From Flammeovirga sp. SJP92 (lineage in GTDB: Bacteria > Bacteroidota > Bacteroidia > Cytophagales > Flammeovirgaceae): a DNA stretch of 64,000 nt. This document shows, in pieces, positions 16,247 to 64,000 of the stretch; the stretch's first letter is position 1, and every line of letters begins with the position of its first letter. The notes under the pieces were generated by a model. The model searched no databases. It had not been told where the DNA came from and saw only the letters and a program-made list of their open reading frames with translations. The translations under genes were made by a program, and so were the position numbers. The stretch spans positions 1 through 64,000 of the forward strand of contig NZ_LQAQ01000032.1 of assembly GCF_001583495.1 (NCBI RefSeq). Reading direction: 5' to 3'.

Positions 16247-17758
16247 ATGAAAATTCTAAAAAATATATCTCTTGGAGTGATTGCTTTATTAGTTGCTCTC
16301 ACATCCTGCCAAAAAGATGAGGTTGTCCCATATGGTGACTTCCAAGACGTTGCCATTTTTTCTCCTTATACTGGCAAAATTACAGTTGAGATTAATCAGC
16401 AAATTTCAATTGCTGATGGATCTAAAGGTTTTATAGATAGAAAATGGTCTGTTCCCTTCCCTTCTTACTTCTTAAATAATGACGACTCTGTATTAAATGA
16501 AGAGACTGCATTTGTGAAGTTTATGGAAGTAGGTGAAGTTCCATTAGTGATCGAATGGCAATTCCAAGATTCTTTAGGTACTACTACAAGAGATTCAACC
16601 TTTATGGTGACGGTATTAGATACGATCACAACAGATATTGCGGTAACAAACATTGAAGGTAATTACACTGAAGAAAATGGCAAGTATATCGTAGAAGCAG
16701 GTTCTATTGTAACAATGACGGATACAAGTTCTGGTAGCCCTGATACTTACCAATGGTTAATTGAAGGTCATGATGAAATTCTAGAAACTAAAACGGTTGA
16801 GGTACAGTACAAAAAACTTGGTTTATACTCTGTAGGTTTAGCTTCTTCTAGATTAGAGCCTTACGGCAAAGTGGATACTCTTATTCTAAGAGACTTCATC
16901 GAAGTAATTCCTTCAACATTACCAGTTGTACTGACAGGTGCAAAAGAAATTGACCAAGCAGGTGTTGTTCATTTACAGTTCTCTAGAGAAATGGATGTTA
17001 TTGACGAAAGTGATATCTCTGCATTTACAGTAAAAGCAAATGGAACTGCTGTTGCAATTAAAACGGTACAGTTGAATAAGAACGATGCTAGTATTGTTGA
17101 GGTGATCTTAGAAGACGACTTGTACAATTCTCAAACTGCATCAGTATCTTATGATGCTAGTGTAGGTAGTGTTCAGTCTTCAGACTTTGTGAAGCTAGAG
17201 ACTTTCACAGATCAAGAAGTAATTGTTTACCTTAACAACTTATTGACAGTGAACCCTGATTTTGAAGATGGTACTAAAAATCCATTTGCTGATCCTTGGA
17301 ATCAAGCAGGTTTTGCCAATGTAACTGTAATTTCTGGTGATTCTCAATCAGGTACTAAACACCTTAACATCTTGATGGATGAAGGTACTAATGCTCAAAT
17401 GGCTATGGAAAGTGGTTTCTTCTCATTAAATAAGGAAAAAACTTACGCATTTGAATTCTGGGTGAAAGTGAAGAGTAATCCTGGTGGAAATGCACTTCAA
17501 TTTACTTGGAGAGTTCAGCCTAGTGATGGATGGGCAGATAACTACAAGTCATGGCAAGGTGCTTGCTGTACTGACCAATTGAAAGCTGAAAATGAAGGTA
17601 CATGGCAAAAAATCCAAATCTTAACGGACAAAAAACCTCCTGCGGATTGGGATGCAGCTAAGCTTCACTTACAAATTGGCAGTGGTGCTGGCGGAAAAAC
17701 GGAAATCGAATTCGATAACTTGAAATTCTACGAGTACGAAGTTCCTCCAACAGAATAG
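16247..17758 (+). CDS. PUL surface lipoprotein, PKD-like with C-terminal carbohydrate-binding-like domain
   Basis: A 503-residue lipoprotein (LTSC, Cys21), third gene of the susCD operon, in the position where SusE/F-type surface glycan-binding proteins usually lie. Two PKD/Ig-like regions are visible (~35-130 and ~135-230, with TYQWLIEG and YSVGLASS), then a beta-sandwich (~225-330). The C-terminal ~165 residues resemble a CBM4/9-type galactose-binding fold: NPDFEDGTKNPFADPW, SGTKHLNI, YAFEFWVKV and the closing IEFDNLKFYEYEV. A vicinal Cys pair (GACCTDQ) lies in the last domain. A role in capturing the substrate glycan at the cell surface is inferred from position and fold; no enzyme motif is visible. 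Confidence 0.75.
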   Translation: MKILKNISLGVIALLVALTSCQKDEVVPYGDFQDVAIFSPYTGKITVEINQQISIADGSKGFIDRKWSVPFPSYFLNNDDSVLNEETAFVKFMEVGEVPLVIEWQFQDSLGTTTRDSTFMVTVLDTITTDIAVTNIEGNYTEENGKYIVEAGSIVTMTDTSSGSPDTYQWLIEGHDEILETKTVEVQYKKLGLYSVGLASSRLEPYGKVDTLILRDFIEVIPSTLPVVLTGAKEIDQAGVVHLQFSREMDVIDESDISAFTVKANGTAVAIKTVQLNKNDASIVEVILEDDLYNSQTASVSYDASVGSVQSSDFVKLETFTDQEVIVYLNNLLTVNPDFEDGTKNPFADPWNQAGFANVTVISGDSQSGTKHLNILMDEGTNAQMAMESGFFSLNKEKTYAFEFWVKVKSNPGGNALQFTWRVQPSDGWADNYKSWQGACCTDQLKAENEGTWQKIQILTDKKPPADWDAAKLHLQIGSGAGGKTEIEFDNLKFYEYEVPPTE

Positions 17759-36300: not shown

Positions 36301-39300
36301 ATTAAAATCTCTGAACAAGATAAAACCGGTGTAATTTTCAGTGGTTGTAATCCAGTCAATTTTGACTGCATTTTCCTCCTCCACAGCATTTACACTTAGT
36401 GCTACTACTTCTGCAGGAATAGAGTGATCTATTTTTTCTGCAGGATAGCTAATTGTGTTTTGATATTGTGCTTGTAGATGATAAAGTGCAGTGGATAATT
36501 CATTGACATCATAGGTGCCTCCAGCGATTTCATAATTGTCTTTTTCAAGTACAACAACAATTGAATCTACTTCAGATTTACCTGAAATACTTCCATCATT
36601 GAAGTCTTCGAAAATGAAATAACCTTTTTGATCCGAAGCAGTATTCTTACGTTGTATTACTTCTCCATTTACATAAAGTAATGCCATCACATCTACACCC
36701 ATCACAGGAGCTATTCCATCCACGTCTACAATTGTCCCTTCCATTAAGAAATTTCCAGCACTAGAACCAACAGCCGCATAGTTCTTCGACTTTTGGATTT
36801 CGCCAGTGTTTGGGTCTTCGTACACAGCACATAGTTCGTAAATGTAGGAAGCCCCTGCCTCAATTTGATCATCCAAGTAATTTCTATATTGCGTAGGAAG
36901 TGTATCTAACACTGCCCCGTCTCTATAAATTACAAATCGGGCCAAGTGATCCACACGGTGATTCCAAGTAAGCTCAATCATTTCCTCAAGGTTAGTAGTT
37001 GCTGTAAAGCCTGTAGGGTCAACATAAGTCGTTGAAGTACCTGAAAGAGATAATTGACCAGACGTTTTAGAAATATCAACTGGTAATTTTTCTGATGCGA
37101 AGGTGATAATGTACTGTAGCTTAGTAACATTACTTCCTATTCCTGTCAGACCATCTTTGAATTGGTAATCAAAATTACCCGTATACCAATTGGCCACCAC
37201 TACAGTGTCACGACTGCTATTAGAAATTTCAATTCTTGACAGTTGAGCCGCTTCATTTACCCCTAAATTGTTTTGATGAGCAAATCCCCAATTGACATTC
37301 ACAACATTGTTATTCCCTGTAGTAGGATCAAACGCGGCTGAAATCATTAAATCAGCTGAAGAATAATTAATACCAACATTGCTTAATGGGATGGTATTGA
37401 ACGCTGAGACCACTGGATCCTCTGAAAGTGATGTGTTTCTATAGGCTCTAATGTGGTAATTGTACGTTTCACCAAACACCAATGTATTGTCCGTGTATGC
37501 CAAAGCATCATAGACCGCTTCTTTTTTGACATCTGATACTAAAACAGTGTCATCAGCAGCAGAAACACGATAGATATGATAGCCATCAAAGTTATAATTT
37601 GATAACGATAAGTCAATTTCGTCTTCTTGATGCTTCCATACTAAATCAAAACCTTTATCTAAATTGGCCTTACTTTTTGTGAAGTCAAACTCAGGAACAG
37701 GCAATGCTGGTGTTACAAAATCAACAAACTCTAGTCTCGTAGATTTTTCCTCTGAATACTCACTTGCGGTATATAAATAGTAAGTTGCCTTTTCTTCAGG
37801 TAAGAAATCACTCCAGATCATGGAACGGTCTCTTCTTTCAAGGCGTGCCATTTCCTCTTCTTCAGTTGATCCTTCTACAACTCTTGTTATTAGGAAGTGA
37901 TTGAAATCGTAACTTGAAATACCTAGGTTGAATTTCACTTCACCTTTGTTATTTGTAGTCACAGAAAATGAAGTAGGCTTTGGAAGTGATTTTGTACTGA
38001 CATCTGTAATAACAGTTTCATTGTAATTCACTTCATCATGTGTGAATGTACCTGTGATCAACTTGTAATCATATGTAGTATTGGGAGCTACTTTTTCATC
38101 AAAGTACCTCAAACGTACTGGATAATCACTATCATTTGAGCCATCCATATAATAGTTGCTCCATTCGCTGATCAATTCCAATAATTCCCATTCTTCCTCT
38201 GTTTGTTCAGGCAATTTTCTTAAGATATAGAAGACTACTTGATCATTTGGAATCATATCAGGAATAAGGTTGAAGTATATTTCCACTACTGTGGCACTTT
38301 CATTTACACCCAACGACAAAGGATCATAAACTACTGGCAAATCTGCTACAGCATTGAACTCCTCATCCACTAAAACCAATGCCTCATTAATACTTGGTGT
38401 ATCTAAAGAAACATAGAATTCATTGTCCAATAATTCATAATCATAATCTGCTACTTTAATAGAATACGTCAACCCTGTTGAACCAAAATAAAGGTCGTCA
38501 AATGTAAAACCACCTTCAAAATCTGTTGTTGTTGTATCTGAATAAACAACATCATCCAAAATAGCAGAGGCAATGATTCTGGTGTTTTCTAAGGCCCAAG
38601 GTCTTAATGTATCCGCAACATCTACATTACGTCTTCTTCTCCCTCTTCGAATCGTTTCTGCTAGATCAGAAACCAAATGACCACTGATCGAACCAATTCT
38701 TGGTACATCAAGCAATACCTCATCATAGCCATAAATTTCACCGTTTTTGATACCTGCTATTTTATAAGTTTCAGGATCACCATGAATTGGATAAGCATAT
38801 TCATAAGTATCAATGTTTGAACTTAAAAGAGTTACTTGAGATCCATTGTAATAAATAGCCAGCGTATCTATTACCAAGGTATCATTGTCACTGCTCGTTA
38901 AGTTTGTCCAGCTTAATGTAACTGCTCCATCTTTGTACTTACCTGTGATGTCCATATCAAATAAAGCACCATTCGTCTCAGCCAATTCATATATCTCATC
39001 ATGACGAGCATTGTATCTTTTTACAGTATAAGTATTTTCTTCGCCCATCACTAGACCTTCACTTTGGAAATCCTCATACGATTTGCTTCGAGTTCTAGCA
39101 ATCTCAGAGCTGTTCCTGTATACAATATATTGGTCCGTCACATCACTAGAGTCAGCCCATGACAATGTCACTTTTCCTGGATCATTTGTGGTAGCTACAA
39201 GGTCTCCCTCATATAAAGTATTTGTGGACCCTGATGTTCTCAATGTCACACAGACAGGCTCACTAGAACCATATTCTGTAATTTGCAAACGGTAATTTCT

Positions 39301-40788
39301 GCTTACATCTGGACCTAAGAAATCAATTACAGAACCAACAAATAGTCTGTTTTTATCTGTCTCATTATCAAAAGCGGTCCAGTTGCCATAATTTACCCCT
39401 GCCACATAACTTGGATTATCCGTCACTTCATTCACCAATGACAATGCATTTCCGCTGTCATAGTTTTTAGCTGAATATAAAGCCACAAGCCCCGTTGTAG
39501 ATCCCAAAACAGGATAGTAATAATTGTACTTTACTTCTAAGCTGTTTCTTGTATGATCCCACAGTCTGATGTCGGCAATTGCTCCATTGAGTTGCTCACC
39601 ATTTCCATTACCTGCAATTTTAGTGAATTCCCAAGGCATAATTCCAGTCACAGTATTGATAAGTTCACCATCAATATACAATTTAAATACCTGCTCACCA
39701 GAGGCTGGTTCTGCCGTCAATGAAACGTGAGTCCAAGTATTTTGCTCAATAACTCCACCTAATTCTTGTTCACCATCTTCAGTCTTTAAGTAAAAGGTAT
39801 TATTGCTGATATAAAACTGTTGTTGTTCAGCATTATCCGTTAAGATTAAATGTTTATTTTGGCTCAACTCTTCAATCTTAATCCAAGCTTCAAAACTGTA
39901 CTCGTAAGACCTGAAACCTGTCGATAAATTGGCAATTGGATCTATTGAAATATAAGATTCCTCTTTCTCGAACATCAATTGATATTCCCCATTCAGTTTT
40001 GTTGAATTGATAAACGAAGAAGGATCAGTAATGTGTGTTACAAATATTTCTTCTTCTGTATCATCATCCAATATTCTGAAATAAACAGATTCATCAAAGT
40101 CTCCAATCAAACAGTTGGCATCAATTTCCCATTCCACCAGAACCATATCATCTGATGCTTTATTGGAAGCTGTGAGACCAAAAGCCATCACAGAACCATA
40201 ATCTGCCATGTATTCTGATTCATGATAAGAAGTTACAGGAGCATTTTGATCATAGCCAAAAGCTCTTAGAATATATAAATACTCTTTACCGCTTTCCACA
40301 TCATAATCTGTATACGTGAAACCTGGTGCATCGATAGCCACTGTTGCAATATGCACCATGTTATCAGTAAGGTTTGTGGCAATTGTGCTGTCTGAAATTT
40401 CAAGCACATTTTCTGCTTCTGCACGATAAATCCATATACTGTCATAGTATTTTGATTCAATCGCATCTGCATTATAAGACCATGTCACCTCTAAACCAGA
40501 GTAAAGAGAGAAGTCTTTGGCGTCCACTTTGTCTAAAATGTGGTGCTTTTCTGAGATACCTCCATTGGAGATCTCACCGTCATTTATTTCGATGGTAGCA
40601 CTACTGAAATAAAATAGTGTGCTATTCGAACAGGCCGGGTCAAAATTGACAATAGGCGCCTGTTCAAAGTCATTCCGATTGGTACAGCCATCATTTATGC
40701 TTTGTGCCATCAGTTCCGCCTGACTGAACAAAGTAAATGTAAAGGCAATAGCAATCCAGGACTTTAATTTATAATAAAAGCCTTTCAT
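33319..40788 (-). CDS. N-terminal part of giant LamG/FN3 surface protein
   Basis: 2489 residues. A signal peptide ends at ELMAQ (~29). A LamG/concanavalin-like domain (~255-430, YSFEAWIKIEELSQNKHLIL; FKLYIDGELINTVTG; IADIRLWDHTRN) is followed by many FN3-like repeats carrying the motif DGF.(L/I)YRDGEYL......YTD..G.PG.(S/T)Y.Y. At least four carboxypeptidase-regulatory-like domains are interspersed (GSISGHLVSDLAETIRR; FLMEGTIVDVDGIAP; VTGLVATANGNLPVEGAEI; INGMVTKAITGCPVEGATV). The ORF ends abruptly (IFDKRYMNMIHC) without a T9SS domain, which is found in the overlapping -1 frame. The two ORFs therefore represent one gene broken near 33383-33396. The fibre-like gene at 40883 lies 94 bp upstream in the same direction. 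Confidence 0.85.
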   Translation of the reverse strand: MKGFYYKLKSWIAIAFTFTLFSQAELMAQSINDGCTNRNDFEQAPIVNFDPACSNSTLFYFSSATIEINDGEISNGGISEKHHILDKVDAKDFSLYSGLEVTWSYNADAIESKYYDSIWIYRAEAENVLEISDSTIATNLTDNMVHIATVAIDAPGFTYTDYDVESGKEYLYILRAFGYDQNAPVTSYHESEYMADYGSVMAFGLTASNKASDDMVLVEWEIDANCLIGDFDESVYFRILDDDTEEEIFVTHITDPSSFINSTKLNGEYQLMFEKEESYISIDPIANLSTGFRSYEYSFEAWIKIEELSQNKHLILTDNAEQQQFYISNNTFYLKTEDGEQELGGVIEQNTWTHVSLTAEPASGEQVFKLYIDGELINTVTGIMPWEFTKIAGNGNGEQLNGAIADIRLWDHTRNSLEVKYNYYYPVLGSTTGLVALYSAKNYDSGNALSLVNEVTDNPSYVAGVNYGNWTAFDNETDKNRLFVGSVIDFLGPDVSRNYRLQITEYGSSEPVCVTLRTSGSTNTLYEGDLVATTNDPGKVTLSWADSSDVTDQYIVYRNSSEIARTRSKSYEDFQSEGLVMGEENTYTVKRYNARHDEIYELAETNGALFDMDITGKYKDGAVTLSWTNLTSSDNDTLVIDTLAIYYNGSQVTLLSSNIDTYEYAYPIHGDPETYKIAGIKNGEIYGYDEVLLDVPRIGSISGHLVSDLAETIRRGRRRRNVDVADTLRPWALENTRIIASAILDDVVYSDTTTTDFEGGFTFDDLYFGSTGLTYSIKVADYDYELLDNEFYVSLDTPSINEALVLVDEEFNAVADLPVVYDPLSLGVNESATVVEIYFNLIPDMIPNDQVVFYILRKLPEQTEEEWELLELISEWSNYYMDGSNDSDYPVRLRYFDEKVAPNTTYDYKLITGTFTHDEVNYNETVITDVSTKSLPKPTSFSVTTNNKGEVKFNLGISSYDFNHFLITRVVEGSTEEEEMARLERRDRSMIWSDFLPEEKATYYLYTASEYSEEKSTRLEFVDFVTPALPVPEFDFTKSKANLDKGFDLVWKHQEDEIDLSLSNYNFDGYHIYRVSAADDTVLVSDVKKEAVYDALAYTDNTLVFGETYNYHIRAYRNTSLSEDPVVSAFNTIPLSNVGINYSSADLMISAAFDPTTGNNNVVNVNWGFAHQNNLGVNEAAQLSRIEISNSSRDTVVVANWYTGNFDYQFKDGLTGIGSNVTKLQYIITFASEKLPVDISKTSGQLSLSGTSTTYVDPTGFTATTNLEEMIELTWNHRVDHLARFVIYRDGAVLDTLPTQYRNYLDDQIEAGASYIYELCAVYEDPNTGEIQKSKNYAAVGSSAGNFLMEGTIVDVDGIAPVMGVDVMALLYVNGEVIQRKNTASDQKGYFIFEDFNDGSISGKSEVDSIVVVLEKDNYEIAGGTYDVNELSTALYHLQAQYQNTISYPAEKIDHSIPAEVVALSVNAVEEENAVKIDWITTTENYTGFILFRDFNAIEKIELLEGQPLEFLDKTGLPGESYTYGIQSYTEIPNGQDYYGDTLLYDHSVIYPGICNISSFYATAVQDSNEVRLSWTYTGIADEFHLYRSGDIIAAISSEEANRFVDSTAVPGINYVYKLIGYNKTSNSFSQEATVTTTYPNLQVVQNFTATTTDQNVVNLSWMYPAGHIDGYKIERNGKLLAQLESEVMTFTDTSGIPETWHEYTIYAYREDAFDKYYSSTVTDTATFPQLASIRNLQVASDNNVAKIDWSYDYDYIDGFVLYRDGEYLTELAPNVTSYTDTDGKPGFSYTYQVKVHDFREEAQSMYYSDEVEKTLAAYPNFPTLGTISSSGNSKHHLGAKWTYDWEYINGFIVYVNNAAVDTLESWERDFYYIDNDGSSCGLTRSVKVAPFRYIDGSVVTNSTANRTVNLSFGSCNSDVDMITSLEAETNYSVVKLSWQFNADKDLDEVRIFRNGEYIGLTNGTSYEFYDSEAEINTLNLYEVIPYKNSVPNGAKAVASAYAYALNSVTGLVATANGNLPVEGAEIKLTHTDDNNITYSYVTETNNVGGYDFNQIYFNEDDSVEYTITASYNDHRLINTPQSFTITESGVHSAATIYDLDGKSINGMVTKAITGCPVEGATVTLHYKDVLGNDVKASEQSITDGTGFYSFVPLAMEGLEYYVIDISDQDLENGTEGYYSFNVEPDTLIAALFMDKAEFSYVDSTTYDFAVNVVNGCHGSLGAYNFEVLVESKEGCMYEKYNTNLNGLLELSLPVGEYSLRVSGAEPLDPISQSVVDYFATRPQQIDVKGIHESILSGEREYVGEEDSIKYFEYHVIPEILTLQVTGFEDVIEEFNLTNTTPDQIPDWLNVFVQGNDYEFNFQIEEQINTNTCVLDYGTVVVRNAAANAEKANIELQAGPDGLFNYTFTAENINPAVPYIQGMFVEYYSKDGEFLTAIGYPVLVTGTAAAAGRDILVSVDTTDNGEILRHNGHILLIIFDKRYMNMIHC

Positions 40789-40882: not shown

Positions 40883-42622
40883 TTACTTTTTTCTGTTCTT
40901 TCTTTTTTCTCTTTTTGATTTCTTTTGTTCTACGGCAGCAATTTTCTTCTCCAATTCGATGACATATAAGGTTAACTCTTCTACTTTTTCAAGTAAAATA
41001 CGTTCTACTTCCACAACATCAACACCTGATTCTTTCACTTCTGCCGCTGAAGGCATGTTAGGCAAGTGACCTTTTTCTTCTATAAATGAAGCTACTTCTG
41101 ATAAAGGTGCCAATTCATATTCTTCTTCAAATACGTAGTCAGGCCATTCATTACTTGGAGCGGCTACTACACGTTTTGCAATCACATCGCCTTCCACAAT
41201 CAATTCATACTGATCAATTGCATGATCATTAAAACTGCTGTGATCTCTTGAACCAATATAAACTTGTGATTCAAAATTAGCATCTTTTTCAAATGAAGCT
41301 ATGTTTTCAAAAGTGGCCGACTTCTCAAAAGTTGCGGATTCTCCAAAACTTGAAGCTCCATTGGCTCTGAAAGTACCACCTACATTTAATTTATATTGAG
41401 AATTACTCACCCCAATACCTACATTACCTAAGTTGTTGATGGCAAAGTGTGTACCCCAAGAGATTGTTTCTCCAGCCAATTTACCTGAACCATCAGCCCA
41501 TTTGAATTCAATCCAGTCACCATTGGTTACTTCCACACCCATATCTATGAAAGCAGCATCCTCATTTCCTACAAGGAATTTTTCACTTGTACCAGTAGTA
41601 GCGTTCCACTTATGCTGAATTCTACCATTACCATCTTGCACAGAAATATTGTACTGTGAAGTTGGACCAGGAATAATGATTCCTTCATCCCCATGTAAAG
41701 CTGTTCCATTGTCTTCATTGTTGAAGATAGTGTTACCGTTACCACCTAAAACAACACTACCATTGACATCCAATCTTGTTTGCGGTGTAGTGGTTCCAAT
41801 ACCAAAGTAACCATCAGCAGACATACGTGCTTTTGTACTGTTATTGATTCTTAGGTCAATCACTTTACCCGTTTTCGCATTGACAAATGTGTTACCATCT
41901 GCTTTTTGCAATAACGCATAGCTCGATGAAGTGTAGTTATCGTAATGTGCAAACGCGGCCATGTCTGAGTAATTGGAGATATAACCAATTTTTGCCATAC
42001 CAATAACAGCAGTTACATCAGTATTGGGGTATACTTCCAAATACTCAGTTGCATTACCTGTACCAATTTTGACCTTACCTGCACTTGAGATTCTTAATCT
42101 TTCAGTACCATTCGTACCGAATTGCATGAAATCGTTCGATTCATTCCAGATAAAAGTTTCTCCATTGGTGTGTTGTCCCATAGTAAACCTAGAACTCGTC
42201 CCTGAATAGAAGTTCAACCTTGTTGAACTATTTGGATCAGAAATTCTAATATTACCATTGTAGACATGAAGTTTGTCACTTGGGTTATCTAAGCCAATAC
42301 CCACTCGACGTGATTTCAAATAGATGTCATAGCTCGTGTTTGCATCGATGATCATACCACCGTATTTTGAGCTTTCTGGGTTCCATTGTCTCAGACCTGA
42401 CCATGTTTTGCCATCAGTTTCTGTTACAATCATTCCCACCCTTAGAGGACCACCTACATAGGTGTCATTGTTGTCGAGGTCCATATAGTCCTCGTTCTTA
42501 TTGATTGCAGTACCAACCCACCATTCTTGGGCCATAGTTTTAGTAGTTGTGCATACCATTAGTGTAATAAACAATGGTACTAGAATAGCTACTTTCTGCA
42601 TTGAGAAATAATAATGTTTCAT
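40883..42622 (-). CDS. Fibre-like secreted protein with DYVF/HLP C-terminal module
   Basis: 579 residues. The frame gives a signal peptide (CTTTKTMAQ, ~31). A long stalk/head of tail-fibre-like repeats follows (VGIGLDNPSDKLHVYNGNI; FGIGTTTPQTRLDVNGSV; VGIGVSNSQYKLNVGGTF), then a short heptad-like run of SFGESATFEKSATFE repeats (~440-470). The C-terminal module runs from DYVFEEEYELAPLSEV through GHLPNMPS to LLEKVEELTLYVIELEKKI, with a very basic tail (KKSKREKRKNRKK). It is a relative of the array at 56.8-64 kb and has no T9SS sorting domain. By analogy with phage tail fibres the C-terminus may trimerise or assist folding; this is inference. It lies upstream of, and is probably co-transcribed with, the giant LamG/FN3 protein. 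Confidence 0.85.
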   Translation of the reverse strand: MKHYYFSMQKVAILVPLFITLMVCTTTKTMAQEWWVGTAINKNEDYMDLDNNDTYVGGPLRVGMIVTETDGKTWSGLRQWNPESSKYGGMIIDANTSYDIYLKSRRVGIGLDNPSDKLHVYNGNIRISDPNSSTRLNFYSGTSSRFTMGQHTNGETFIWNESNDFMQFGTNGTERLRISSAGKVKIGTGNATEYLEVYPNTDVTAVIGMAKIGYISNYSDMAAFAHYDNYTSSSYALLQKADGNTFVNAKTGKVIDLRINNSTKARMSADGYFGIGTTTPQTRLDVNGSVVLGGNGNTIFNNEDNGTALHGDEGIIIPGPTSQYNISVQDGNGRIQHKWNATTGTSEKFLVGNEDAAFIDMGVEVTNGDWIEFKWADGSGKLAGETISWGTHFAINNLGNVGIGVSNSQYKLNVGGTFRANGASSFGESATFEKSATFENIASFEKDANFESQVYIGSRDHSSFNDHAIDQYELIVEGDVIAKRVVAAPSNEWPDYVFEEEYELAPLSEVASFIEEKGHLPNMPSAAEVKESGVDVVEVERILLEKVEELTLYVIELEKKIAAVEQKKSKREKRKNRKK

Positions 42623-56797: not shown

Positions 56798-58195
56798 TCA
56801 TTTTTTCAAAAGTTGCTCAATTAGTTTTTGTTGATTTAGATATAAAGTTTTAATCTCTTCTATTTCTTTATTCTTAGCTTCGAGTTCTTTGATTTTTTTG
56901 TCCTGCTCAATAGTATAAAGTGTCAATTCCTCAATCTTCCTCAATAACATCGCTTCCGTCTCCCCAACATTCACCCCATTTTCTTCTACTTCTTTTGCTG
57001 ATGGTACATCTGGCAAGTGTTTATGTTCCTTAATATGTGCTTCTACTTCAGAAAGTGGTTTCAGATCATAATTTTCTTCAAAAACATAATCTGCCCATCC
57101 TGTATAAACCTTTACCTCAGTAGCTCTAATATTTCCATTAACAGAAAGTTTGAAACCTGCAGTATTTTTTGTACCGATACCCACATTACCATTGCTTAAA
57201 TTGCTGTATAAATAAGTATAGTCACTTAGTTCAGAGTTTGTGAAAGAATTTTTATTTCCAATCAATGATGCTCTTGGTATTTGGAAAAAACTAACACCTG
57301 AATGGGTATAAATAATACCCCCTGTTTCATTGTAAGTATAATCATTCCTTTTCCATAGTTTCTCATCTTGAACCCATTCAAACTGACCACCATATTGATA
57401 AACCCAAGCTTCTCTAACATAACCATTGTCACTGCTTCCTTTTGTCATACCGATTGTCGTATATTTTGACTTGGATCCTCCTGAAAAATAACTATCTCCT
57501 GATACATGTAATTTATAAGCAGGTGTTTCAGTTCCAATACCTAATGAACCATCAGCAAGCATTTTCATATATGTCTTTGAGTAACTTTTCCATGCGAATA
57601 GTGGCCTGTTTACAATTGGCCCGCCAATTATTCTACCATCAAAAATTACCAACGGCTGAGTTCCTTTATCTTGTTCTGGTGAAGTTTGGCCTGAAACATA
57701 TAAAGATGTTCTTTCAGTCGATTCAACATATCCTTTTAGAATTGGCATAAATTGTCCTGACTCAGCTGTTGCATTTGCCAATTGAAAGTAATCTTTCACA
57801 CCATCAACTTTAGCAAGTAAGAATAGTTCACTTGAGGATTCTTTTGCATTTAAATTTAAAACATGGTTACCATAGGATGTTGAACCAATAGTTAGATTCT
57901 GCTTAAATAAAGCTTTTCCGTACCCATCCAATGAAAAGAGAGACTTCCACTCTGAATCAACATAACTATTATAACCTATTGAAAAATCACTAGTATATTC
58001 ATCACCTAGATTGATTTTTAAAAATGTTCTGTCATTGGTTTGGTCATCTCTAAAAATATAAGTTGGATCTGTATTATACCCTTTATCTGGATCATCAATA
58101 ATGATTTTTGTAAAAGTACCCTCTTGACCAAAAGAATAATTTACATTTACAAAAATAAATGCAATGATAAAAAAGATGTTTTTAGTTTGCTTCAT
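56798..58195 (-). CDS. Fibre-like array protein 1 (DYVF/HLP module)
   Basis: 465 residues, last gene of the array. Signal peptide to ~NYSFGQ (23). The head/stalk contains tail-fibre-like phrases (DGSLGIGTETPAYKLHVSGDSYFSGG; GNVGIGTKNTAGFKLSVNGNI). The shared C-terminal module runs ~365-465: WADYVFEENYDLKPLSEVEAHI, HKHLPDVPSAKEVEENGVNVGE, LLRKIEELTLYTIEQDKKI, then a coiled coil ending LIEQLLKK. No T9SS domain. Nt 56820-56938, encoding the coiled coil, are identical to 59168-59286 in array protein 3. The start is 23 bp after the stop of the next array gene upstream. A surface-fibre or adhesin role is inferred. Confidence 0.85.
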   Translation of the reverse strand: MKQTKNIFFIIAFIFVNVNYSFGQEGTFTKIIIDDPDKGYNTDPTYIFRDDQTNDRTFLKINLGDEYTSDFSIGYNSYVDSEWKSLFSLDGYGKALFKQNLTIGSTSYGNHVLNLNAKESSSELFLLAKVDGVKDYFQLANATAESGQFMPILKGYVESTERTSLYVSGQTSPEQDKGTQPLVIFDGRIIGGPIVNRPLFAWKSYSKTYMKMLADGSLGIGTETPAYKLHVSGDSYFSGGSKSKYTTIGMTKGSSDNGYVREAWVYQYGGQFEWVQDEKLWKRNDYTYNETGGIIYTHSGVSFFQIPRASLIGNKNSFTNSELSDYTYLYSNLSNGNVGIGTKNTAGFKLSVNGNIRATEVKVYTGWADYVFEENYDLKPLSEVEAHIKEHKHLPDVPSAKEVEENGVNVGETEAMLLRKIEELTLYTIEQDKKIKELEAKNKEIEEIKTLYLNQQKLIEQLLKK

Positions 58196-58218
58196 AACTT
58201 ATTTTTTAAAAGTATTAC

Positions 58219-59142
58219 TTAATTATTTTTTTGTTCTAGTTGTTTTAAACGTTGTTCATAATCATTTATTACCTCCTGTTGTTTTAGAAGATAAAGTGTG
58301 AGTTCTTCTATTTTTTTAAGTAAAATAAGATTCATCTCTCCCACATTAATTCCCTCTTCTTTAATAGTTTTCTCTGATGGGACTTCTGGTAAATGACTAT
58401 TTTTGTCAATGAAGTCCTTTACTTCTTCTAGTGATTTTAATTCATAGTCCTCTTTAAAAACATAATCAGGAACATCAATAGTAGCTTGCACTTTAACTTC
58501 TTTAGACAATAACTTCCCATTCAGGGTTAATCCTCCATCAATGTATTGATCCCCATGATCATTTATTACTTTTGCCCAAGTTCCAGAACCATCCTTACCT
58601 GTACTCCTGAAATACATTGTAGGGTTTGTAGCTGAATTTTTCACTGCCAACTGACCATTATATCTATACTCTTCATGATTTGATCCGTGGTTCATGTTCA
58701 GTCCCCAAAACCAACCAGATGATTCTGGTGCATTTTCTGCATTATATGATTCTATAAAACTACTCCCCCAGTTTAAATTCCAGTCTGATATTCGTTTTGG
58801 GTCATATAAAAAAAATTGAGTTCTAACGGTCAGGTCATTCGTTACTACTTTTTTTAGATCCACAGAGTTATTAAAATTCACGTTACCATAAATATCAAAA
58901 CGATTAGAATTATTGTAATTCCAAATTAATCGACCATTGTAGTCAGATGTATAATCAGATGTAAAATCGATAAAACCTCCAACACCTGATTTTAGCTCAA
59001 TTGATGAATAAACATCTGATCTGTTAATTTCTAAAGAACCCTTCATCTTATTTGAGCCATCGGTTCTAAGGTATTCTTGTGAATAAACTGTGCTCAAAAA
59101 ACAGTTTACATAAATGAATAAAAGTAAAATTTTTGTTTTCAT
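58219..59142 (-). CDS. Fibre-like array protein 2 (DYVF/HLP module)
   Basis: 307 residues. Signal peptide to ~TVYSQ (21). The head has SWFWGLNMNHGSNHEEYRYN-type sequence, as in structural fibres whose beta-strands carry glycine-rich turns. The C-terminal module is VPDYVFKEDYELKSLEEV, NSHLPEVPSEKTIKEEG, LLKKIEELTLYLLKQQ. Its coiled coil is shorter and different (EQRLKQLEQKNN). It has the GEMN variant shared with array proteins 5 and 6 (AEMN) rather than the GE(S/T)(D/E) variant of proteins 1, 3 and 4. It is 3 bp from array gene 3, so co-translation is likely. Function unknown. Confidence 0.85.
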   Translation of the reverse strand: MKTKILLLFIYVNCFLSTVYSQEYLRTDGSNKMKGSLEINRSDVYSSIELKSGVGGFIDFTSDYTSDYNGRLIWNYNNSNRFDIYGNVNFNNSVDLKKVVTNDLTVRTQFFLYDPKRISDWNLNWGSSFIESYNAENAPESSGWFWGLNMNHGSNHEEYRYNGQLAVKNSATNPTMYFRSTGKDGSGTWAKVINDHGDQYIDGGLTLNGKLLSKEVKVQATIDVPDYVFKEDYELKSLEEVKDFIDKNSHLPEVPSEKTIKEEGINVGEMNLILLKKIEELTLYLLKQQEVINDYEQRLKQLEQKNN

Positions 59143-59145
59143 TGT

Positions 59146-60378
59146 TTATTTGTTTAAAAGTTTCTCTATTAGTTTTTGTTGATTTAGATATAAAGTTTTA
59201 ATCTCTTCTATTTCTTTATTCTTAGCTTCGAGTTCTTTGATTTTTTTGTCCTGCTCAATAGTATAAAGTGTCAATTCCTCAATCTTTCTCAATAGAATAG
59301 CATCGCTCTCTCCTAAATTAACTCCACTTTCTTCTACTTCTTGAGCTGAAGGAACATCTGGCAAGTGTTTATGTTCTTTGATGTGAGCTTCTACTTCCGA
59401 AAGTGGTTTAAGGTCATAATCTTCTGCAAAAACATAATCTGGCCATGCATTCATTTCAACCTTTACGGATCTAGCCCCTATAGAACCATCAACAGCTAAC
59501 CTATAATCAGGCTTTGTGAAATTACCTATTATCACTTGAGCATTTTTTTCTCTCGCTAATTGAATTTGATCTTGGTTTACACTAATCATGTTTTTAGAAT
59601 TATGTGTAATTTCTAGCTCTCCATCTGCAACAATATTAATACCTATATCATCATCTTCATTACAAATTCCAATACCTGTATTTCCAAAACTAATACTTGA
59701 TCCTCCTCTGCTAAAAATTGAATATTGATCTAAGGCTATATTTCCTCTAACATCTAACTTCTGAGATGGAGTACTCGTCCCAATCCCAACTCTTGCTCCA
59801 CTATCAATAGTCATTGCAGTTATAATTTCTAACGATTGTTGCGATTTACTATAAGATGATTTTGAAATACCAAAACGTAAGTGACCTTTTGTTGGATCTA
59901 GTCTAATTTCACTTACATATCCATCTAACATTGATGTACCTGCTCCACCAGGTGCATAACCAAAACCTAATACTTTGTGACCTCCATCATGAAAAGAGAA
60001 CCCGTCTCTTAAATCCAATATATTTTTGGGTGATGTAGTTCCAATACCGATTAGACCGTCATGGCCAATATGAAGCCTCTCTATGGGTTCTCCTCCTGTT
60101 TGTGGCGTTGTTAAAAATTGGAGATAAGTTCCCCAACTTGTCCATCTATAAGACCTTATGATACTTTGACCAGCACTATTAAAATGAAAAATAAAATCTC
60201 TTTTGCTACCTTCATTTAAAGGCTGATTGGGGCCTAAAATTTTAATATAAGAGTAAGTATTATTATTATTGTTCCCTATGGTCAAGTTTCCAGAAGAACT
60301 ATTATTGCCACTTGGGCTCCATTGTGCAAATGAAATGGATGAATAGAGTATAAATAAAATTGTAAATAGATTTTTCAT
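59146..60378 (-). CDS. Fibre-like array protein 3 (DYVF/HLP module)
   Basis: 410 residues. Signal peptide to SFAQ (~18). The head/stalk has several fibre phrases (GLIGIGTTSPKNILDLRDG; ARVGIGTSTPSQKLDVRGNI; VIIGNFTKPDYRLAVDGSI). The C-terminal module WPDYVFAEDYDLKPLSEV..HKHLPDVPSAQEV..LLRKIEELTLYTIEQDKKI is nearly the same as in array protein 1, including a 119-bp identical DNA tract. The heads of the two proteins show no similarity that I can see by eye. 37 bp from the preceding array gene. Confidence 0.85.
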   Translation of the reverse strand: MKNLFTILFILYSSISFAQWSPSGNNSSSGNLTIGNNNNNTYSYIKILGPNQPLNEGSKRDFIFHFNSAGQSIIRSYRWTSWGTYLQFLTTPQTGGEPIERLHIGHDGLIGIGTTSPKNILDLRDGFSFHDGGHKVLGFGYAPGGAGTSMLDGYVSEIRLDPTKGHLRFGISKSSYSKSQQSLEIITAMTIDSGARVGIGTSTPSQKLDVRGNIALDQYSIFSRGGSSISFGNTGIGICNEDDDIGINIVADGELEITHNSKNMISVNQDQIQLAREKNAQVIIGNFTKPDYRLAVDGSIGARSVKVEMNAWPDYVFAEDYDLKPLSEVEAHIKEHKHLPDVPSAQEVEESGVNLGESDAILLRKIEELTLYTIEQDKKIKELEAKNKEIEEIKTLYLNQQKLIEKLLNK

Positions 60379-60415
60379 TTGATGTTTTGTTTACTAATAG
60401 TAGTTTCGTTATTGA

Positions 60416-61276
60416 TTAGTTTTTTATATCCTTGATCTCTTTTTTCAATTGATCAAGTTCTTCTTTGAGCAATTTATTTGTTTTATCTTGATCAATAATG
60501 TAAAGAGTAAGCTCTTCAATTTTCCTTAATAACATCGCATCACTTTCACCTAGGTTGATTCCCTCTTCTTTCACCTGCTTTGCAGAAGGCACATCCGGTA
60601 GGTGTCCATTTTCTTGAATATGCTTTTCAACATCTGAAAGTGGTCTTAAGTCATAGTTCTCCTCAAAAACATAATCTGCCCAATCTGTATATACTTTAAC
60701 TTCTTCGGCTCTTATTTTCCCACCTACAGATAATTGATAATCATCATATTTTGAGGTATTTATAGCCACTTTATCATGAAATTGAGCTCTACCATGATAG
60801 ATATGAGCATGATCAATTAGCTTATCATATATTAGAAGTTTTCCTCCATTATCCGAAAGGTTATTATCTTGTTGTTGTCCTAACAAATCAGTAGAAAAAA
60901 AATGTGAATCTATAATTGTAAATACACCTGTGTTCACACCATCAGTCGCCTTTACCCAAATTTCAGAGGTACCTCCCTTATTTATATAAGCAAATTGTAA
61001 TTGATTATGTGAACTATAACCCATCGTTTGATGAGTTTGAATAGTATGTCCTTGAGAATTAATAAACTGAATAGTTCCTTTTGATATTGAAGGATTATGT
61101 GAAGTACTGTGAGAGTAATTATAAGTAAAAGAAGCATGCCTCCCTCCTTTAGTTCCCACAAGAAACCAATTACCATTTCCTTCTAAATCGAATGAGGCCG
61201 AATTAGAAGGTTTTATTTGTGCAAAAAGCAAAGATGGTAATACACAGAATATTATTATACTTAAATACTTTTTCAT
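60416..61276 (-). CDS. Fibre-like array protein 4 (DYVF/HLP module)
   Basis: 286 residues. Signal peptide MKKYLSIIIFCVLPSLLFAQ. The compact head (~22-150) differs from the other members and is rich in Ser/His/Asn (NGNWFLVGTKGG; YNYSHSTSHNPSISKGTIQF; TSEIWVKATDGVNTGVF). It lacks the repeated IGT..P stalk phrase but keeps VAINTSKYDDYQLSVGGKI. The C-terminal module is WADYVFEENYDLRPLSDV, NGHLPDVPSAKQVKEEGINL, then a KEELDQLKKEIKDIKN coiled coil. Its ATG overlaps the stop of array gene 5 by one base (TAATG), indicating translational coupling. Confidence 0.85.
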   Translation of the reverse strand: MKKYLSIIIFCVLPSLLFAQIKPSNSASFDLEGNGNWFLVGTKGGRHASFTYNYSHSTSHNPSISKGTIQFINSQGHTIQTHQTMGYSSHNQLQFAYINKGGTSEIWVKATDGVNTGVFTIIDSHFFSTDLLGQQQDNNLSDNGGKLLIYDKLIDHAHIYHGRAQFHDKVAINTSKYDDYQLSVGGKIRAEEVKVYTDWADYVFEENYDLRPLSDVEKHIQENGHLPDVPSAKQVKEEGINLGESDAMLLRKIEELTLYIIDQDKTNKLLKEELDQLKKEIKDIKN

Positions 61277-62373
61277 TATTCTCTATTCAATAGTAATTGC
61301 TTCAATAATTCTACTTCCTTTTTGAGTTCTTTGAGCTCATTAATTTGTTTTTCCTGCTCAATAGTATAGAGAGTAAGTTCCTCAATCTTTTTTAGCAGTA
61401 ACAAATTCATCTCTGCCAAATGTAAACCTTTGGCTCCTAATTCCTTTGCTGACTTAACTTCAGGTAAGTGACTGTTATGATTAATATATTTTTCAAGCTC
61501 TTCTAACGAAATTAAATTATACTTTTCGCTAAATACATAATCTGGTACTGATCCAGCGTCAACTGTAACTTTCACTTCTTGAGCATGAATTTTACCTTTT
61601 ACGGTTAACTTTGAGTCTGGGGAAGCAGTTCCAATGCCTACATTTCCATAATGACCATTTATATGAACAACTGACTTTATACCATTTCCTCCTACATTTG
61701 ATTTAAAATCAAAGTTTCCACCACCTGATTTATTATTAAAAACTACTGTATTTTCATCATCAATATACTGATGATAGCTTACAGCTCCATCAGACCTTTG
61801 AAGTGCTAGTTGCTTTTCCCCATCATTATAATCTACAGTTATTGGTTCTGAAAAGTTACCTTTGAAAGCCACATTACTGATAATTCCATATGTTGGTTCT
61901 TCCAGCAGTAATTCTCCTGAGGAATTAATTGTATTGGGATCTCCTAATGTAATTACTGGATGACCACCATGTAACCCAAGGTTAGAAAAGTTCACTGTAA
62001 ATGATCGGTGCATATGCTGTACATGAGCCGTTAGATGAACTTTACTATCACTTATTTTCCTAAGTTTAAGTGTAATGTTTGCAAGCTTTATATCTTGCTG
62101 TAGACCATATTCAAAACCTTGATAAAATCTCACAAATAATGAAAAGTTGGACTGTTGTGGAAGATCAAAACCCCAATTACCATTGCTGTCTATAATATTT
62201 CCTACAATCTGCATCCCCTCGTAAGGACTAATACTTTCTGCATCAATAACAGCAATAACTCTCTCCCCTGTGGTTTGATGAGATTGGAAATTGACCGAAA
62301 AGTCTTGTGCTTGTACTTGAGTGAAAAACAACGGACCCATTATAAGTACTAGAATGAATAGTTTAGCTCTCAT
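61276..62373 (-). CDS. Fibre-like array protein 5 (DYVF/HLP module)
   Basis: 365 residues, first complete gene downstream of the array's promoter. Signal peptide to QVQAQ (~22). The head (~25-230) has repeated His-containing strands (KVHLTAHVQHMHRSFTVNF; LGLHGGHPVITLG). The stalk phrase is GNVGIGTASPDSKLTVKGKI, followed by HAQEVKVTV, which is also found in the partial gene at the window end. The module is VPDYVFSEKYNLISLEEL, NSHLPEVKSAKELGAKGLHL, LLKKIEELTLYTIEQEKQI, with a Leu-rich coiled coil. A predicted promoter at 62547 would drive genes 5 to 1. Confidence 0.85.
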   Translation of the reverse strand: MRAKLFILVLIMGPLFFTQVQAQDFSVNFQSHQTTGERVIAVIDAESISPYEGMQIVGNIIDSNGNWGFDLPQQSNFSLFVRFYQGFEYGLQQDIKLANITLKLRKISDSKVHLTAHVQHMHRSFTVNFSNLGLHGGHPVITLGDPNTINSSGELLLEEPTYGIISNVAFKGNFSEPITVDYNDGEKQLALQRSDGAVSYHQYIDDENTVVFNNKSGGGNFDFKSNVGGNGIKSVVHINGHYGNVGIGTASPDSKLTVKGKIHAQEVKVTVDAGSVPDYVFSEKYNLISLEELEKYINHNSHLPEVKSAKELGAKGLHLAEMNLLLLKKIEELTLYTIEQEKQINELKELKKEVELLKQLLLNRE

Positions 62374-62693
62374 AATTAATTTTGCTTGTTTGCTATTTAT
62401 TTATAAATCTATTTAGTACTAAACTTTTATGATCTCAGAAAAAAGCATAGAGAAAAAAAGAGAAATTTATTTATTGTAATCTTTCAGATTGAAGCTCATT
62501 TTCTTTAATGTTATATATAAGTTTAGTTTTATTGTTGAAAGAGATGCAAAGTTAGTTATACATTCTCATTCTACAATATTATACATAGTTTTTCTAATTG
62601 CTTAAAATTTTTCGATATCAAAGAATATAGTTACCCCACTAGTTCAAACTATCTAAGAGGAAAGGATAATTATTTTTTTTGAGAGATTCAGCT
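62374..62693. other. Leader/promoter region of the fibre operon
   Basis: 320 AT-rich bp with no ORF. It holds the promoter at 62547-62576 and an AATGTTATATATAA segment similar to that upstream of the related gene at 42622. Confidence 0.5.
62547..62576 (-). promoter_or_regulatory. Predicted promoter of the fibre-protein operon
   Basis: On the minus strand TTG (62576-62574), 19-bp spacer, TAACTTTG (62554-62547). This fits the Bacteroidota -33/-7 pattern, ~175 bp before the first ATG. Confidence 0.5.
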
Positions 62694-63123
62694 TCAAACC
62701 TTTTTAAAACATATTTTAATATAGTTACGGTGAAGTTCCAAATAGTGGTAGACCATTTGATCAGCGGTTACATTATCTGTACTCCAAGCGCATACCCTCC
62801 CATCCAAAAGTGCTTACCTCAATAACGTTTCCGTAAATTTGAAAACTCTTGTAGAAGTATTCGAAAGGTTCGGCCTTTCATTCGCTTTAGAATTTCACTG
62901 AAACTTTTGCTTGGGGGATACTCAATATGAACATGCTCTTTATTGACTACTCCTTTCAATATTTCAATACCTTCAGTCTCACATATTTGAATGAGAAGAA
63001 ATCTACACCATTTTTGAATACCCCTTCCAAAACATGGTGTCGATACTTAATCACAATGACGATATGAACGGTTAATCGAGTAACTATATGATTCCCTTTT
63101 CTGTACTCAGTGTCATAATTCAC
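62694..63123 (-). pseudogene. tnpA: Decayed IS200/IS605-family transposase (tnpA)
   Basis: Reading three frames in order gives a nearly full-length ~140-residue Y1 transposase. Frame 1: EYRKGNHIVTRLTVHIVIVIKYR. Frame 2: IQKWCRFLLIQICETEG, EHVHIEYPPSKSFSEILKRM and ILLQEFSNLRKRY-stop-GKHFW. Frame 3: WSTDNVTADQMVYHYLELHRN. The HUH pair (HVH) and a candidate catalytic Tyr (MVYHYLE) are recognisable. Lesions are a frameshift near 63021-63032, a second near 62781-62795, and TGG to TGA at 62819-62821. A 12-bp palindrome GGGTTTAAACCC at 63175-63186 may be a remnant of a hairpin end. Non-functional. Confidence 0.85.
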
Positions 63124-63178
63124 AATATGTATTAGATTTTTTCGAAATACTAAAGTTCTGTACTGAGAGTAGAGGGGT

Positions 63179-63535
63179 TTAAACCCATTTCTGAGACCAA
63201 TAAACTTCTAAATAAGAATATTTTCCATCATATGTTATCCTTGCCTCATTCCAATAGCCTGATGTTGAATTTTCAATAATATTAATTCCTCCATAATTAC
63301 TCCAACCTTTAAATCATGAGATTTCAACAAAATGTAGTGTACAGCAACTACCGGTAGTCATTATACTCACTTCTGAATATCCTCTTCCAGAAGGACTCTT
63401 GCTCATCGCTACTTTTTTCCAACCTGTAGTAGTTACGTTTGCTTTCACTACTGCTTCATTATCTAACTGCTGTCCCTTTTATATTCCAGTATAAAGGAGA
63501 CACATAAAAATTAGTATTATTCTAGCTTTTATCAT
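63179..63535 (-). pseudogene. Decayed small secreted head-like protein of the array
   Basis: An ATG at 63535 overlaps the stop of the upstream array gene (ATGA), as in a coupled operon. The frame reads a signal peptide (MIKARIILIFMCLLYTGI), then a stop, QLDNEAVVKANVTTTGWKKV, HFVEIS, a second stop, FKGWSNYGG and YWNEARITYDGKYSYLEVYW, and ends at a TAA inside the palindrome bordering the IS200-like remnant. YW.EARITYDG.YSYLEVYW resembles a receptor-binding-type fibre domain. The C-terminal DYVF/HLP module is missing, so the gene was probably truncated as well as interrupted. Confidence 0.6.
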
Positions 63536-64000
63536 TTCTCTTGTAATAGTTGATCAATTAGCTTTTGTTGTTTATATAATAAAGATTTTACCTCTTCAAT
63601 TTCTTTATCTTTGGCTTCTAAGCTTTTTATTTTCTTTTCCTGCTCAATAGTGTGTAAAGTCAATTCCTCGATCTTTTTCAATAAGATTAAATTCATTTCT
63701 GCCAAATGAAGTCCTTCCTCTTCAATCTGAGCTGCTGATTTTACTTCAGGTAAATGACTGTGCTTTTTAATATAGTTCTCTACATCTTCCAAAGACATCA
63801 TATGATAGTCTTCTTTGAAAACATAATCGGGTACTGTACCAGCATTAGCTGTAACTTTCACTTCTTGAGCATGTACTTTCCCCGCTATAACAAACTCTCC
63901 ATTTTTCTTGACTCCCCAAAGCCACTTTGAATTTGATTTAGTTGCTTTTAAAGCTGAACCATCAGGAATTGAATTACCTCCATTATCTAGAAATGAAGGA
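63532..64000 (-). CDS. Fibre-like array protein 6, partial (5' end beyond window)
   Basis: The minus-strand frame is open from 64000; the GTG at 63861 is internal, since upstream codons read GNSIPDGSALKATKSNSKW, LWGVKKNGEFVIAGKVHAQE, matching the stalk end of array protein 5. The C-terminal module is complete: VPDYVFKEDYHMMSLEDV, HSHLPEVKSAAQIEEEGLHL, LLKKIEELTLHTIEQEKKI, and a coiled coil ending LIDQLLQEK, similar to array proteins 1 and 3. The gene therefore combines the AEMN variant of protein 5 with the coiled coil of proteins 1 and 3. It is followed with a 4-bp overlap by the decayed gene. Confidence 0.85.
   Translation of the reverse strand, partial: PSFLDNGGNSIPDGSALKATKSNSKWLWGVKKNGEFVIAGKVHAQEVKVTANAGTVPDYVFKEDYHMMSLEDVENYIKKHSHLPEVKSAAQIEEEGLHLAEMNLILLKKIEELTLHTIEQEKKIKSLEAKDKEIEEVKSLLYKQQKLIDQLLQEK

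What the first reader, a model, noticed from the sequence alone, without database searches (positions are those of the whole stretch)
56798..64000. Tandem array of surface-fibre genes with variable heads and one shared C-terminal module
Seven consecutive minus-strand loci (five complete, one partial, one decayed) encode exported proteins. All but the decayed one end in DYVF.E.Y.L..L.EV...I....HLP.V.S, KIEELTL and a coiled coil, while their N-terminal heads look unrelated. They lack T9SS sorting domains, unlike the other surface proteins here. IGT..P..KL.V.G stalk phrases recall phage tail fibres, where a C-terminal intramolecular chaperone trimerises the fibre. Hypothesis: the module is a folding, trimerisation or outer-membrane display domain, and the array is a set of alternative or co-assembled fibre tips. 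The motif itself recurs in Bacteroidota; the array as a system is what seems poorly described.
Basis: partly seen in the sequence, partly recalled or inferred. Interest (0 to 1): 0.75.

Follow-up and report, generated by a model that had tools for sequence, protein, structure and literature searches.

The report
Mosaic fibre-gene array in a Bacteroidota genome
A bacterium carries a long row of genes for exported, phage-tail-fibre-like proteins that share one unnamed end piece but differ in most of the rest, and some relatives of these genes sit beside RHS toxin genes, so the row looks like an interchangeable set of recognition fibres.

Summary
The array is real and longer than reported: 16 intact same-strand genes (contig 56,798-76,632), one decayed gene with an IS200 remnant, and a trio at 99,577-102,912; the genome has 29-30 module matches. 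Pfam and NCBIfam gave no model for the module, which occurs in 55 of 296 genomes sampled from the phylum. Each gene is a mosaic of head, stalk plus module (two classes) and coiled-coil tail, exchanged independently. Of 100 such proteins, 51 match a phage tail-fibre profile. Homology to the S74 phage chaperone is not supported once the coiled coil is removed. New here: a subset of module genes lies in one-strand loci with a two-piece RHS protein and, in some genomes, a type II secretion cluster; 22 of 99 DUF6443-RHS loci have a module within 20 kb (expected 2.8). Against: of 19 module regions taken without regard to neighbours 1 had RHS genes; the best module of a genome lay near DUF6443 in 10 of 49. 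Best reading: a repertoire of exported, probably trimeric recognition fibres, some of them RHS partners.

The parts
56798..58195 (-). fibre gene, 465 aa, class A module, last gene of the array
   Evidence: ORF; module alignment; phage tail-fibre profile E=1.4e-6
58219..59142 (-). fibre gene, 307 aa; its head has a 69% identical counterpart in a congener (L259) where the gene directly precedes a B-like and an RHS-core gene
59146..60378 (-). fibre gene, 410 aa, class A module; tail nearly identical to that of 56798
   Evidence: PHROG tail-fibre match E=4.5e-8
60416..61276 (-). fibre gene, 286 aa, class A module; its last 138 residues were modelled
61276..62373 (-). fibre gene, 365 aa, class B module; T4 gp36 tail-fibre match (24 bits) just below Pfam's cut-off (26)
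62374..63531 (-). decayed fibre gene: head remnant plus fragments of an IS200-like transposase
63532..64000 (-). 3' part of a fibre gene (63532-64698 in the contig, 388 aa), class B module; ten more intact genes follow up to contig position 76632
40883..42622 (-). additional module-bearing gene, 579 aa, outside the array, beside a 2489-aa surface protein

Best explanation
The array is a repertoire of exported, fibre-like recognition or adhesion proteins. Each has a signal-peptide-like N-terminus, a variable head, mostly a beta stalk of the phage tail-fibre kind (IGT..P..KL.V.G), a conserved ~75-residue C-terminal module and a coiled-coil tail. The module plus coiled coil most likely drives folding and homotypic trimerisation of the fibre (inferred). 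The repertoire is diversified by recombination that exchanges heads, module classes and tails separately (shown on DNA) and probably grew by tandem duplication (inferred). Some genes of this family recur in one-strand loci with a two-piece RHS protein (a B-like shell protein and an RHS-core protein with its own C-terminal end), in some genomes beside or within a type II secretion gene cluster. The likely job of the fibres is to bind a target surface, in some loci as partners of the RHS protein (inferred). How the fibres leave the periplasm in this genome, in which no T2SS was detected, is unknown; an outer-membrane-like protein family (contig 102996-104687) next to the trio is a candidate.
For: Extent and operon-like spacing. 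Module C-terminal: median 8, maximum 44 residues after the profile end in 250 module ORFs. Tail-fibre profiles in 51 and 43 of 100 members, T4 gp36 in 6 of 100, single lectin-like and YadA-head cases. AlphaFold model pLDDT 86, helix 94-137 at the end. Mosaicism: 69020/70517 modules 99% but tails 48% identical in DNA; 75415/101773 tails 95%, modules 58%. The site marked by an AraC-type gene (76-78% identity) carries 3 module genes in congener G005, but none in the 16 kb fetched beside it in G004 nor in the 5.4 kb up to the contig end in G003. RHS tie: 22 of 99 DUF6443 loci within 20 kb of a module (expected 2.8); 13 of 99 within 20 kb of the GspE type chosen (0.4); 14 modules within 20 kb of GspE (0.5) (positions compared by hand). 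Of 36 B-type genes with a module within 12 kb the nearest is on the same strand in 36 and upstream in 31 (four loci count twice). Head of array gene 58219 recurs at 69% identity in an RHS locus of a congener and at 50% in a nine-module Galbibacter run followed by a B gene. Controls: 0 of 20 S74 regions and 0 of 9 arbitrary regions hold module, RHS or T2SS genes.
Against: In 19 module regions picked without regard to neighbours 1 had RHS genes and 0 had T2SS; over all 49 non-own genomes with listed coordinates the best module lay within 20 kb of DUF6443 in 10. So most module proteins found lie outside such loci. The 16-gene array itself is about 23 kb from the trio, 29 kb from the B-like gene and 34 kb from the RHS-core gene. 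No oligomer, localisation or binding was tested. No T2SS hit in this genome. The GspE cut-off (1e-90) was set after seeing the table; at 1e-40 (115 genomes) 16 have the module, against 21 expected, so no enrichment. In this genome's C32 RHS locus the order is reversed (RHS gene first, fibres last). Uniform-placement expectations ignore kinship. The S74 control comes from other genomes, six of 15 of which showed no module at all.
Confidence: 0.55

Rival explanations
1. The module is mainly an export or attachment signal: a C-terminal tag recognised by an outer-membrane exporter (a type II system where present, another protein here), and the heads are assorted cargo.
For: C-terminal position; six module genes interleaved with T2SS genes in G240; module genes next to T2SS genes in the Haliovirga (Fusobacteriota) and Persicobacter plasmids; 12 of 25 genomes with GspE at E<=1e-90 have the module against 55 of 296 overall (P=4e-4). 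In the relatives set all five genomes with GspF or strong GspE have the module, against 18 of 38.
Against: This genome, the one with most copies, has no T2SS hit; 43 of 55 module-positive genomes lack GspE at 1e-90; at 1e-40 there is no enrichment (16 of 115; expected 21); half of the cargo is fibre-like rather than assorted.
Confidence: 0.18
2. The genes are a general family of surface adhesins with no functional link to RHS proteins; shared loci reflect hot spots for mobile surface genes.
For: 1 of 19 neighbour-blind module regions has RHS genes; several solo copies in this genome have no RHS neighbour in the fetched stretch (C119, C116, C121, C18).
Against: Same strand in 36 of 36 B-type genes, with gaps under 100 bp in 14 of 36; S74 fibre regions of relatives show no such link (0 of 20).
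Confidence: 0.25
3. The array is a store of cassettes for gene conversion into an expressed fibre locus (the trio beside the RHS genes).
For: Shared segments between array and trio: 74088/101773 89% over 465 nt, 75415/101773 tail 94% over 150 nt.
Against: Array genes are complete, with signal-peptide-like N-termini; gaps are operon-like.
Confidence: 0.12
4. Phage or tailocin fibre genes captured as a prophage remnant.
For: Tail-fibre profile matches; 31 hits in viral contigs.
Against: Signal-peptide-like N-termini; none of 10 neighbouring window ORFs searched matched a phage Pfam family (ORFs on the other side were not searched systematically); no match of one module to 50,697 phage records.
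Confidence: 0.05

Closest known systems
Bdellovibrio mosaic adhesive trimer (MAT) fibres (PMC10769870, passages seen)
   Same: Repertoire of 21 chimeric fibre proteins with signal peptides, phage-fibre-like, some with a C-terminal chaperone, ends exchanged in evolution
   Different: In MAT fibres the N-terminus is conserved and the tip is C-terminal; here the C-terminal module is conserved and the head varies. 13 of 21 MATs carry an S74 domain with the SDxxxK motif; the module here lacks it. The word 'tandem' does not occur in that paper's held text
Peptidase_S74 / intramolecular chaperone domain (PF13884)
   Same: C-terminal position after a beta stalk, ends in a coiled coil; top PDB structural hit is the MyRF ICA domain (E=2.6, not significant)
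   Different: No Pfam match, no conserved Ser, no sequence homology without the coiled coil
T2SS cluster of Flavobacterium psychrophilum CC-ST10 (PMC5808330, passages seen)
   Same: Single-species report of a T2SS cluster with two proteins having ABC-toxin domains and a putative adhesin
   Different: No shared module family, array or phylum-wide linkage in the passages seen; I did not compare those genes with the module
Two-piece RHS shell of ABC toxins (B and C components; recalled, cited in PMC5808330)
   Same: A B-like protein with an SpvB-type N-terminus (motif recalled) next to an RHS-core protein; RHS-repeat match over the Pfam cut-off in 4 of 8 B-like proteins searched
   Different: The three B-like proteins of this genome beside DUF6443 genes are below the cut-off or unmatched; no useful PDB sequence match; no A component was looked for
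TANFOR polymorphic toxins of Bacteroidetes (PMC7073777, outline and passages seen)
   Same: Bacteroidetes toxin loci with surface-protein neighbours
   Different: Those neighbours include T9SS substrates with sorting domains; none was found in the module proteins

Membership tests
Peptidase_S74 / ICA | Match to the family profile | tested here: not met
   PF13884 not among the 20 families matched by 100 members at E<=1e-4
Peptidase_S74 / ICA | Catalytic SDxxxK motif for self-cleavage | tested here: not met
   Invariant columns of 94 sequences contain no Ser; motif definition from PMC10769870
Peptidase_S74 / ICA | Profile or fold similarity | tested here: inconclusive
   hhalign 86% with coiled coil, 2.4% without; Foldseek best PDB hit 7dc3 at E=2.6; phage ICA protein in BFVD at E=0.033
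MAT-like trimeric fibres | Exported, tail-fibre-like stalk | tested here: met
   By sequence only: signal-peptide pattern 26 of 28; tail-fibre PHROG 9942 in 51 of 100
MAT-like trimeric fibres | Conserved ~130-aa beta domain after the signal peptide | tested here: not met
   Heads at 0.16 mean identity, 0.12 shuffled
MAT-like trimeric fibres | Homotrimer | not testable with these tools
   Only monomer prediction offered
T9SS substrates | C-terminal sorting domain | tested here: not met
   No match in 6 window proteins; none among the Pfam families of 100 members
T2SS substrates | Host has a T2SS | tested here: not met
   No GspF or GspE hit in G000; 12 of 55 module genomes have GspE at E<=1e-90
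Fibre partners of two-piece RHS loci | Fibre, B-like and RHS-core genes on one strand, adjacent | tested here: inconclusive
   Met for a subset: 36 of 36 B-type genes same strand, three RHS loci of this genome each with a module gene or fragment. Not met for the 16-gene array itself nor for 18 of 19 neighbour-blind regions

The most novel reading that the evidence does not exclude
A multi-fibre targeting system for two-piece RHS toxins: interchangeable exported fibres, each homotrimerised by a shared non-proteolytic C-terminal module and kept apart from its paralogues by a swappable coiled-coil tail acting as an assembly barcode, dock onto or guide a B-C RHS shell, with a T2SS exporting the parts in some lineages and an outer-membrane protein family replacing it in others. 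The array would be a bank of alternative target-recognition fibres.
Probability: 0.22. Interest if true: 0.88.

Novelty: new variant of a known kind. Interest (0 to 1): 0.6.

Why it matters
The module is common (55 of 296 sampled genomes of the phylum) yet no Pfam or NCBIfam model was found for it, so many unnamed proteins could be recognised as one fibre family. The linkage of a subset to RHS proteins and to a type II system suggests candidate substrates for a system whose authors wrote that its function as a true T2SS could not yet be concluded (PMC5553014, passages), and a way RHS proteins could be aimed. The mosaic tails give a natural test of how paralogous fibres avoid mixed assembly.

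Tried and rejected
Rejected or weakened: T9SS substrates (no sorting domain); prophage origin; membership of Peptidase_S74; phase variation by inversion (no inverted repeat that suggests it); the Bacteroidota-type promoter pattern (recalled) gave no more than chance (1 found, 1.7 expected). My own stronger idea that the module is dedicated to T2SS or RHS loci was weakened by the neighbour-blind test (1 of 19 with RHS, 0 of 19 with T2SS). How that set was made: best-scoring module of 19 of the first 24 non-own module genomes; left out were G062, G244 and G260 (no coordinates listed) and G240 and G248 (not fetched; their best modules are not within 20 kb of DUF6443). The structure of the outer-membrane-like protein was uninformative (pLDDT 45, six sequences). 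PDB sequence searches gave nothing useful. Literature: ten searches; that the module and the three-way linkage are undescribed rests on these listings and on passages of five papers only. The label '102 tallied' printed is a slip; the sum is 99. One region asked for was a two-base placeholder of mine and was left out; one of 20 did not exist.
Full report
OBSERVATION. The window end holds five complete minus-strand ORFs and one cut one with the described C-terminus, and one decayed locus. The genome (8.49 Mb, 123 contigs, unnamed; taken as Bacteroidota from its T9SS sorting domains and the named hits, an inference) has 29 matches to one module and 30 to an alignment of modules. The array continues beyond the window: 16 intact genes from contig position 56798 to 76632, a solo at 80054-80998 and a trio at 99577-102912. 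Gaps in the 16-gene run are -17 to +145 bp, apart from 1158 bp at the decayed locus, which holds a head remnant and IS200 transposase fragments. In 28 module ORFs found by pattern in this genome the module start lies 79-99 residues from the C-terminus, with 144-494 residues before it.

ANATOMY. The module alignment of 27 copies has 15 invariant columns; over 94 diverse sequences 12 remain: D, V, F, H, L, G, L, L, K, E, E, L. The model of the last 138 residues of gene 60416 (pLDDT 86) shows short stalk strands, two short helices and one helix of 44 residues at the end. For 20 genes of the contig, heads are nearly unrelated (0.16 identity, shuffled 0.12), modules 0.85 within class A and 0.79 within class B, tails 0.38-0.39 within a class (shuffled tails 0.26). 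Tails do not follow module class: 69020 and 70517 share 99% of module DNA but 48% of tail DNA; 75415 (class B) and 101773 (class A) share 95% of tail DNA but 58% of module DNA; 69020 (B) and 74088 (A) tails are 80% (protein view). Only 9 of 190 tail pairs reach 60% identity, seven of them across classes. This is direct evidence of cassette exchange with a break near the EELTLY motif.

WHAT THE HEADS LOOK LIKE. Of 100 full-length members (27 of this genome, 73 from the 80 named loci, one per locus, 200-750 aa; 3 of 103 candidates left out), 51 match PHROG 9942 and 43 PHROG 18345, both tail fibre. Pfam finds T4 gp36 in 6, fn3 in 2 and single cases of Laminin_G_3, YadA head and sialidase N-domain. 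No Pfam family among the 20 matched is a C-terminal module family.

IS THE MODULE THE PHAGE CHAPERONE? Layout is alike: C-terminal, after a beta stalk, ending in a coiled coil. The PDB structural hits include the MyRF ICA domain (first) and Bdellovibrio fibre tips, but none is significant (best E=2.6); among viral models the best are E=0.014 (a Megaviridae protein) and 0.033 (a phage ICA-domain protein). Profile comparison with eight S74 sequences of relatives gives 86% probability, but 2.4% after removing the coiled coil from both. No invariant Ser exists. So it may work like that chaperone; it is not shown to be one. This genome has one S74 match.

DISTRIBUTION. Module in 18 of 38 relatives and 55 of 296 genomes sampled over the phylum, own genome included in both; at most 17 candidates per genome were scored, so copy numbers are lower bounds. 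Tandem runs recur: 12 of the 80 named loci have three or more modules, up to 12 in Arcticibacter, 9 in Galbibacter, 7 in Pedobacter frigoris; the Persicobacter plasmid has 18 places.

THE RHS AND T2SS LINK. In two relatives of the same family (G009 three times, G011 once) a locus recurs: 2-4 module genes or pieces, an outer-membrane-like protein, B-like and RHS proteins. The RHS protein of this genome's C32 locus has DUF6443 and the RHS core. Of eight B-like proteins searched four have an RHS-repeat match over the Pfam cut-off; this genome's are below it or unmatched; the N-terminus recalls SpvB (recalled). All three DUF6443 loci of this genome have a module gene or fragment within 12 kb. Over 296 genomes: DUF6443 in 41, module in 55, both in 24 (expected 7.6); GspE of the Persicobacter kind (E<=1e-90, cut-off set after seeing the table) in 25, of which 12 have the module (expected 4.6) and 17 DUF6443 (expected 3.5). 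At E<=1e-40, which takes in other secretion ATPases (inference), 16 of 115 have the module (expected 21). 22 of 99 DUF6443 loci lie within 20 kb of a module (expected 2.8), 13 of 99 within 20 kb of the 1e-90 GspE (0.4), and 14 modules within 20 kb of it (0.5) (positions compared by hand; one of the 22 rests on a module fragment listed). In G240 six module genes are interleaved with the T2SS cluster. In the Haliovirga plasmid RefSeq annotation shows T2SS genes, and four module genes and an RHS protein follow; in the Persicobacter plasmid T2SS genes were confirmed by Pfam. Of 36 B-type genes with a module within 12 kb the nearest is on the same strand in 36 and upstream in 31; four loci count twice and some rows are fragments. 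In this genome's C32 locus the order is reversed.

CONTROLS AND COUNTER-EVIDENCE. Nine regions at arbitrary offsets in T2SS-bearing genomes and 20 regions around S74 genes of relatives (20 of 26 listed places; six of those 15 genomes showed no module) had no module, RHS or T2SS gene. Ten regions chosen by GspE alone (10 of the 25 genomes) had modules in 3 and RHS-type genes in 7. Nineteen regions chosen by module alone had RHS genes in 1 and T2SS in 0. By coordinates the best module of a genome was within 20 kb of DUF6443 in 10 of the 49 non-own genomes with listed coordinates. So RHS/T2SS loci tend to carry modules, while most modules lie elsewhere. The 80 named loci (23 with RHS-type, 6 with T2SS genes) were selected for similarity to this array and overstate the link. 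In 31 viral-contig loci one had RHS-type genes.

HISTORY OF THE ARRAY. An AraC-type gene at 81166-82167 marks the site. Its orthologue in G005 is followed by three module genes, one of them (7564) 72% identical over nearly the full length to array gene 73140; G004 shows none in the 16 kb fetched beside it and G003 none in the 5.4 kb up to its contig end. The array is thus a lineage-specific expansion or was lost elsewhere. The head of array gene 58219 recurs in congener G003 directly before a B-like and an RHS gene (69% identity) and in Galbibacter at the end of a nine-module run before a B gene (50%): array members and RHS-locus fibres belong to one pool.

MECHANISM. Shown: signal-peptide-like N-termini, fibre-like stalks in half, shared C-terminal module, cassette exchange, arrays, statistical linkage of a subset to RHS and T2SS. 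Inferred: trimer formation by module and coiled coil; recognition by heads; partnership with RHS shells; tail as assembly barcode. Not known: exit route from the periplasm here. T2SS exports folded proteins (established knowledge), which would suit a fibre assembled in the periplasm, but no T2SS was detected in this genome.

PRIOR WORK. PMC5808330 (passages) notes one Flavobacterium psychrophilum T2SS cluster with ABC-toxin-domain proteins and a putative adhesin. Bdellovibrio MAT fibres (PMC10769870, passages) are the closest functional analogue. PMC5553014 (passages) describes the Bacteroidetes T2SS cluster. PMC7073777 (outline, passages) and PMC3482391 (passages, mostly tables) cover other polymorphic toxins. 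The ten library searches listed no paper that, from what I saw, describes the module or the three-way link; most subscription papers are not held.

Noticed in passing
window 62819-63207: Fragments of an IS200-like transposase (Y1_Tnp) inside the fibre array, at the decayed gene.
   Followed up: yes
L181 (G240), 2323-16942: Six module genes interleaved with type II secretion genes in one cluster.
   Followed up: partly
L152 (Haliovirga abyssi plasmid pHIC) 4331-29253: T2SS genes, four module genes (by pattern) and a 2390-aa RHS protein in one run in Fusobacteriota, suggesting inter-phylum transfer.
   Followed up: partly
L032 2996-4687 and homologues in L163, L164, L165, L167, L173: Family of outer-membrane-like proteins with internal repeats and many predicted strands (low-confidence model), between fibres and RHS genes; outside family f1 only one weak match (L088) among the 80 named loci.
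   Followed up: partly
window 33319-40788: 2489-aa surface protein with Laminin_G_3, carboxypeptidase-regulatory and fn3 matches directly downstream of the additional module gene 40883-42622.
   Followed up: no
L183 12356-16033: B-like protein carrying DUF5977 (E=5e-24) near its end, next to T2SS genes.
   Followed up: no
L171 (G036) 2087-6055: 1322-aa ORF whose start resembles Cas9 (recalled), near T2SS genes.
   Followed up: no
L153 (Leisingera plasmid) 9050-10255: Module gene beside polysaccharide biosynthesis and export genes in an alphaproteobacterial plasmid.
   Followed up: no
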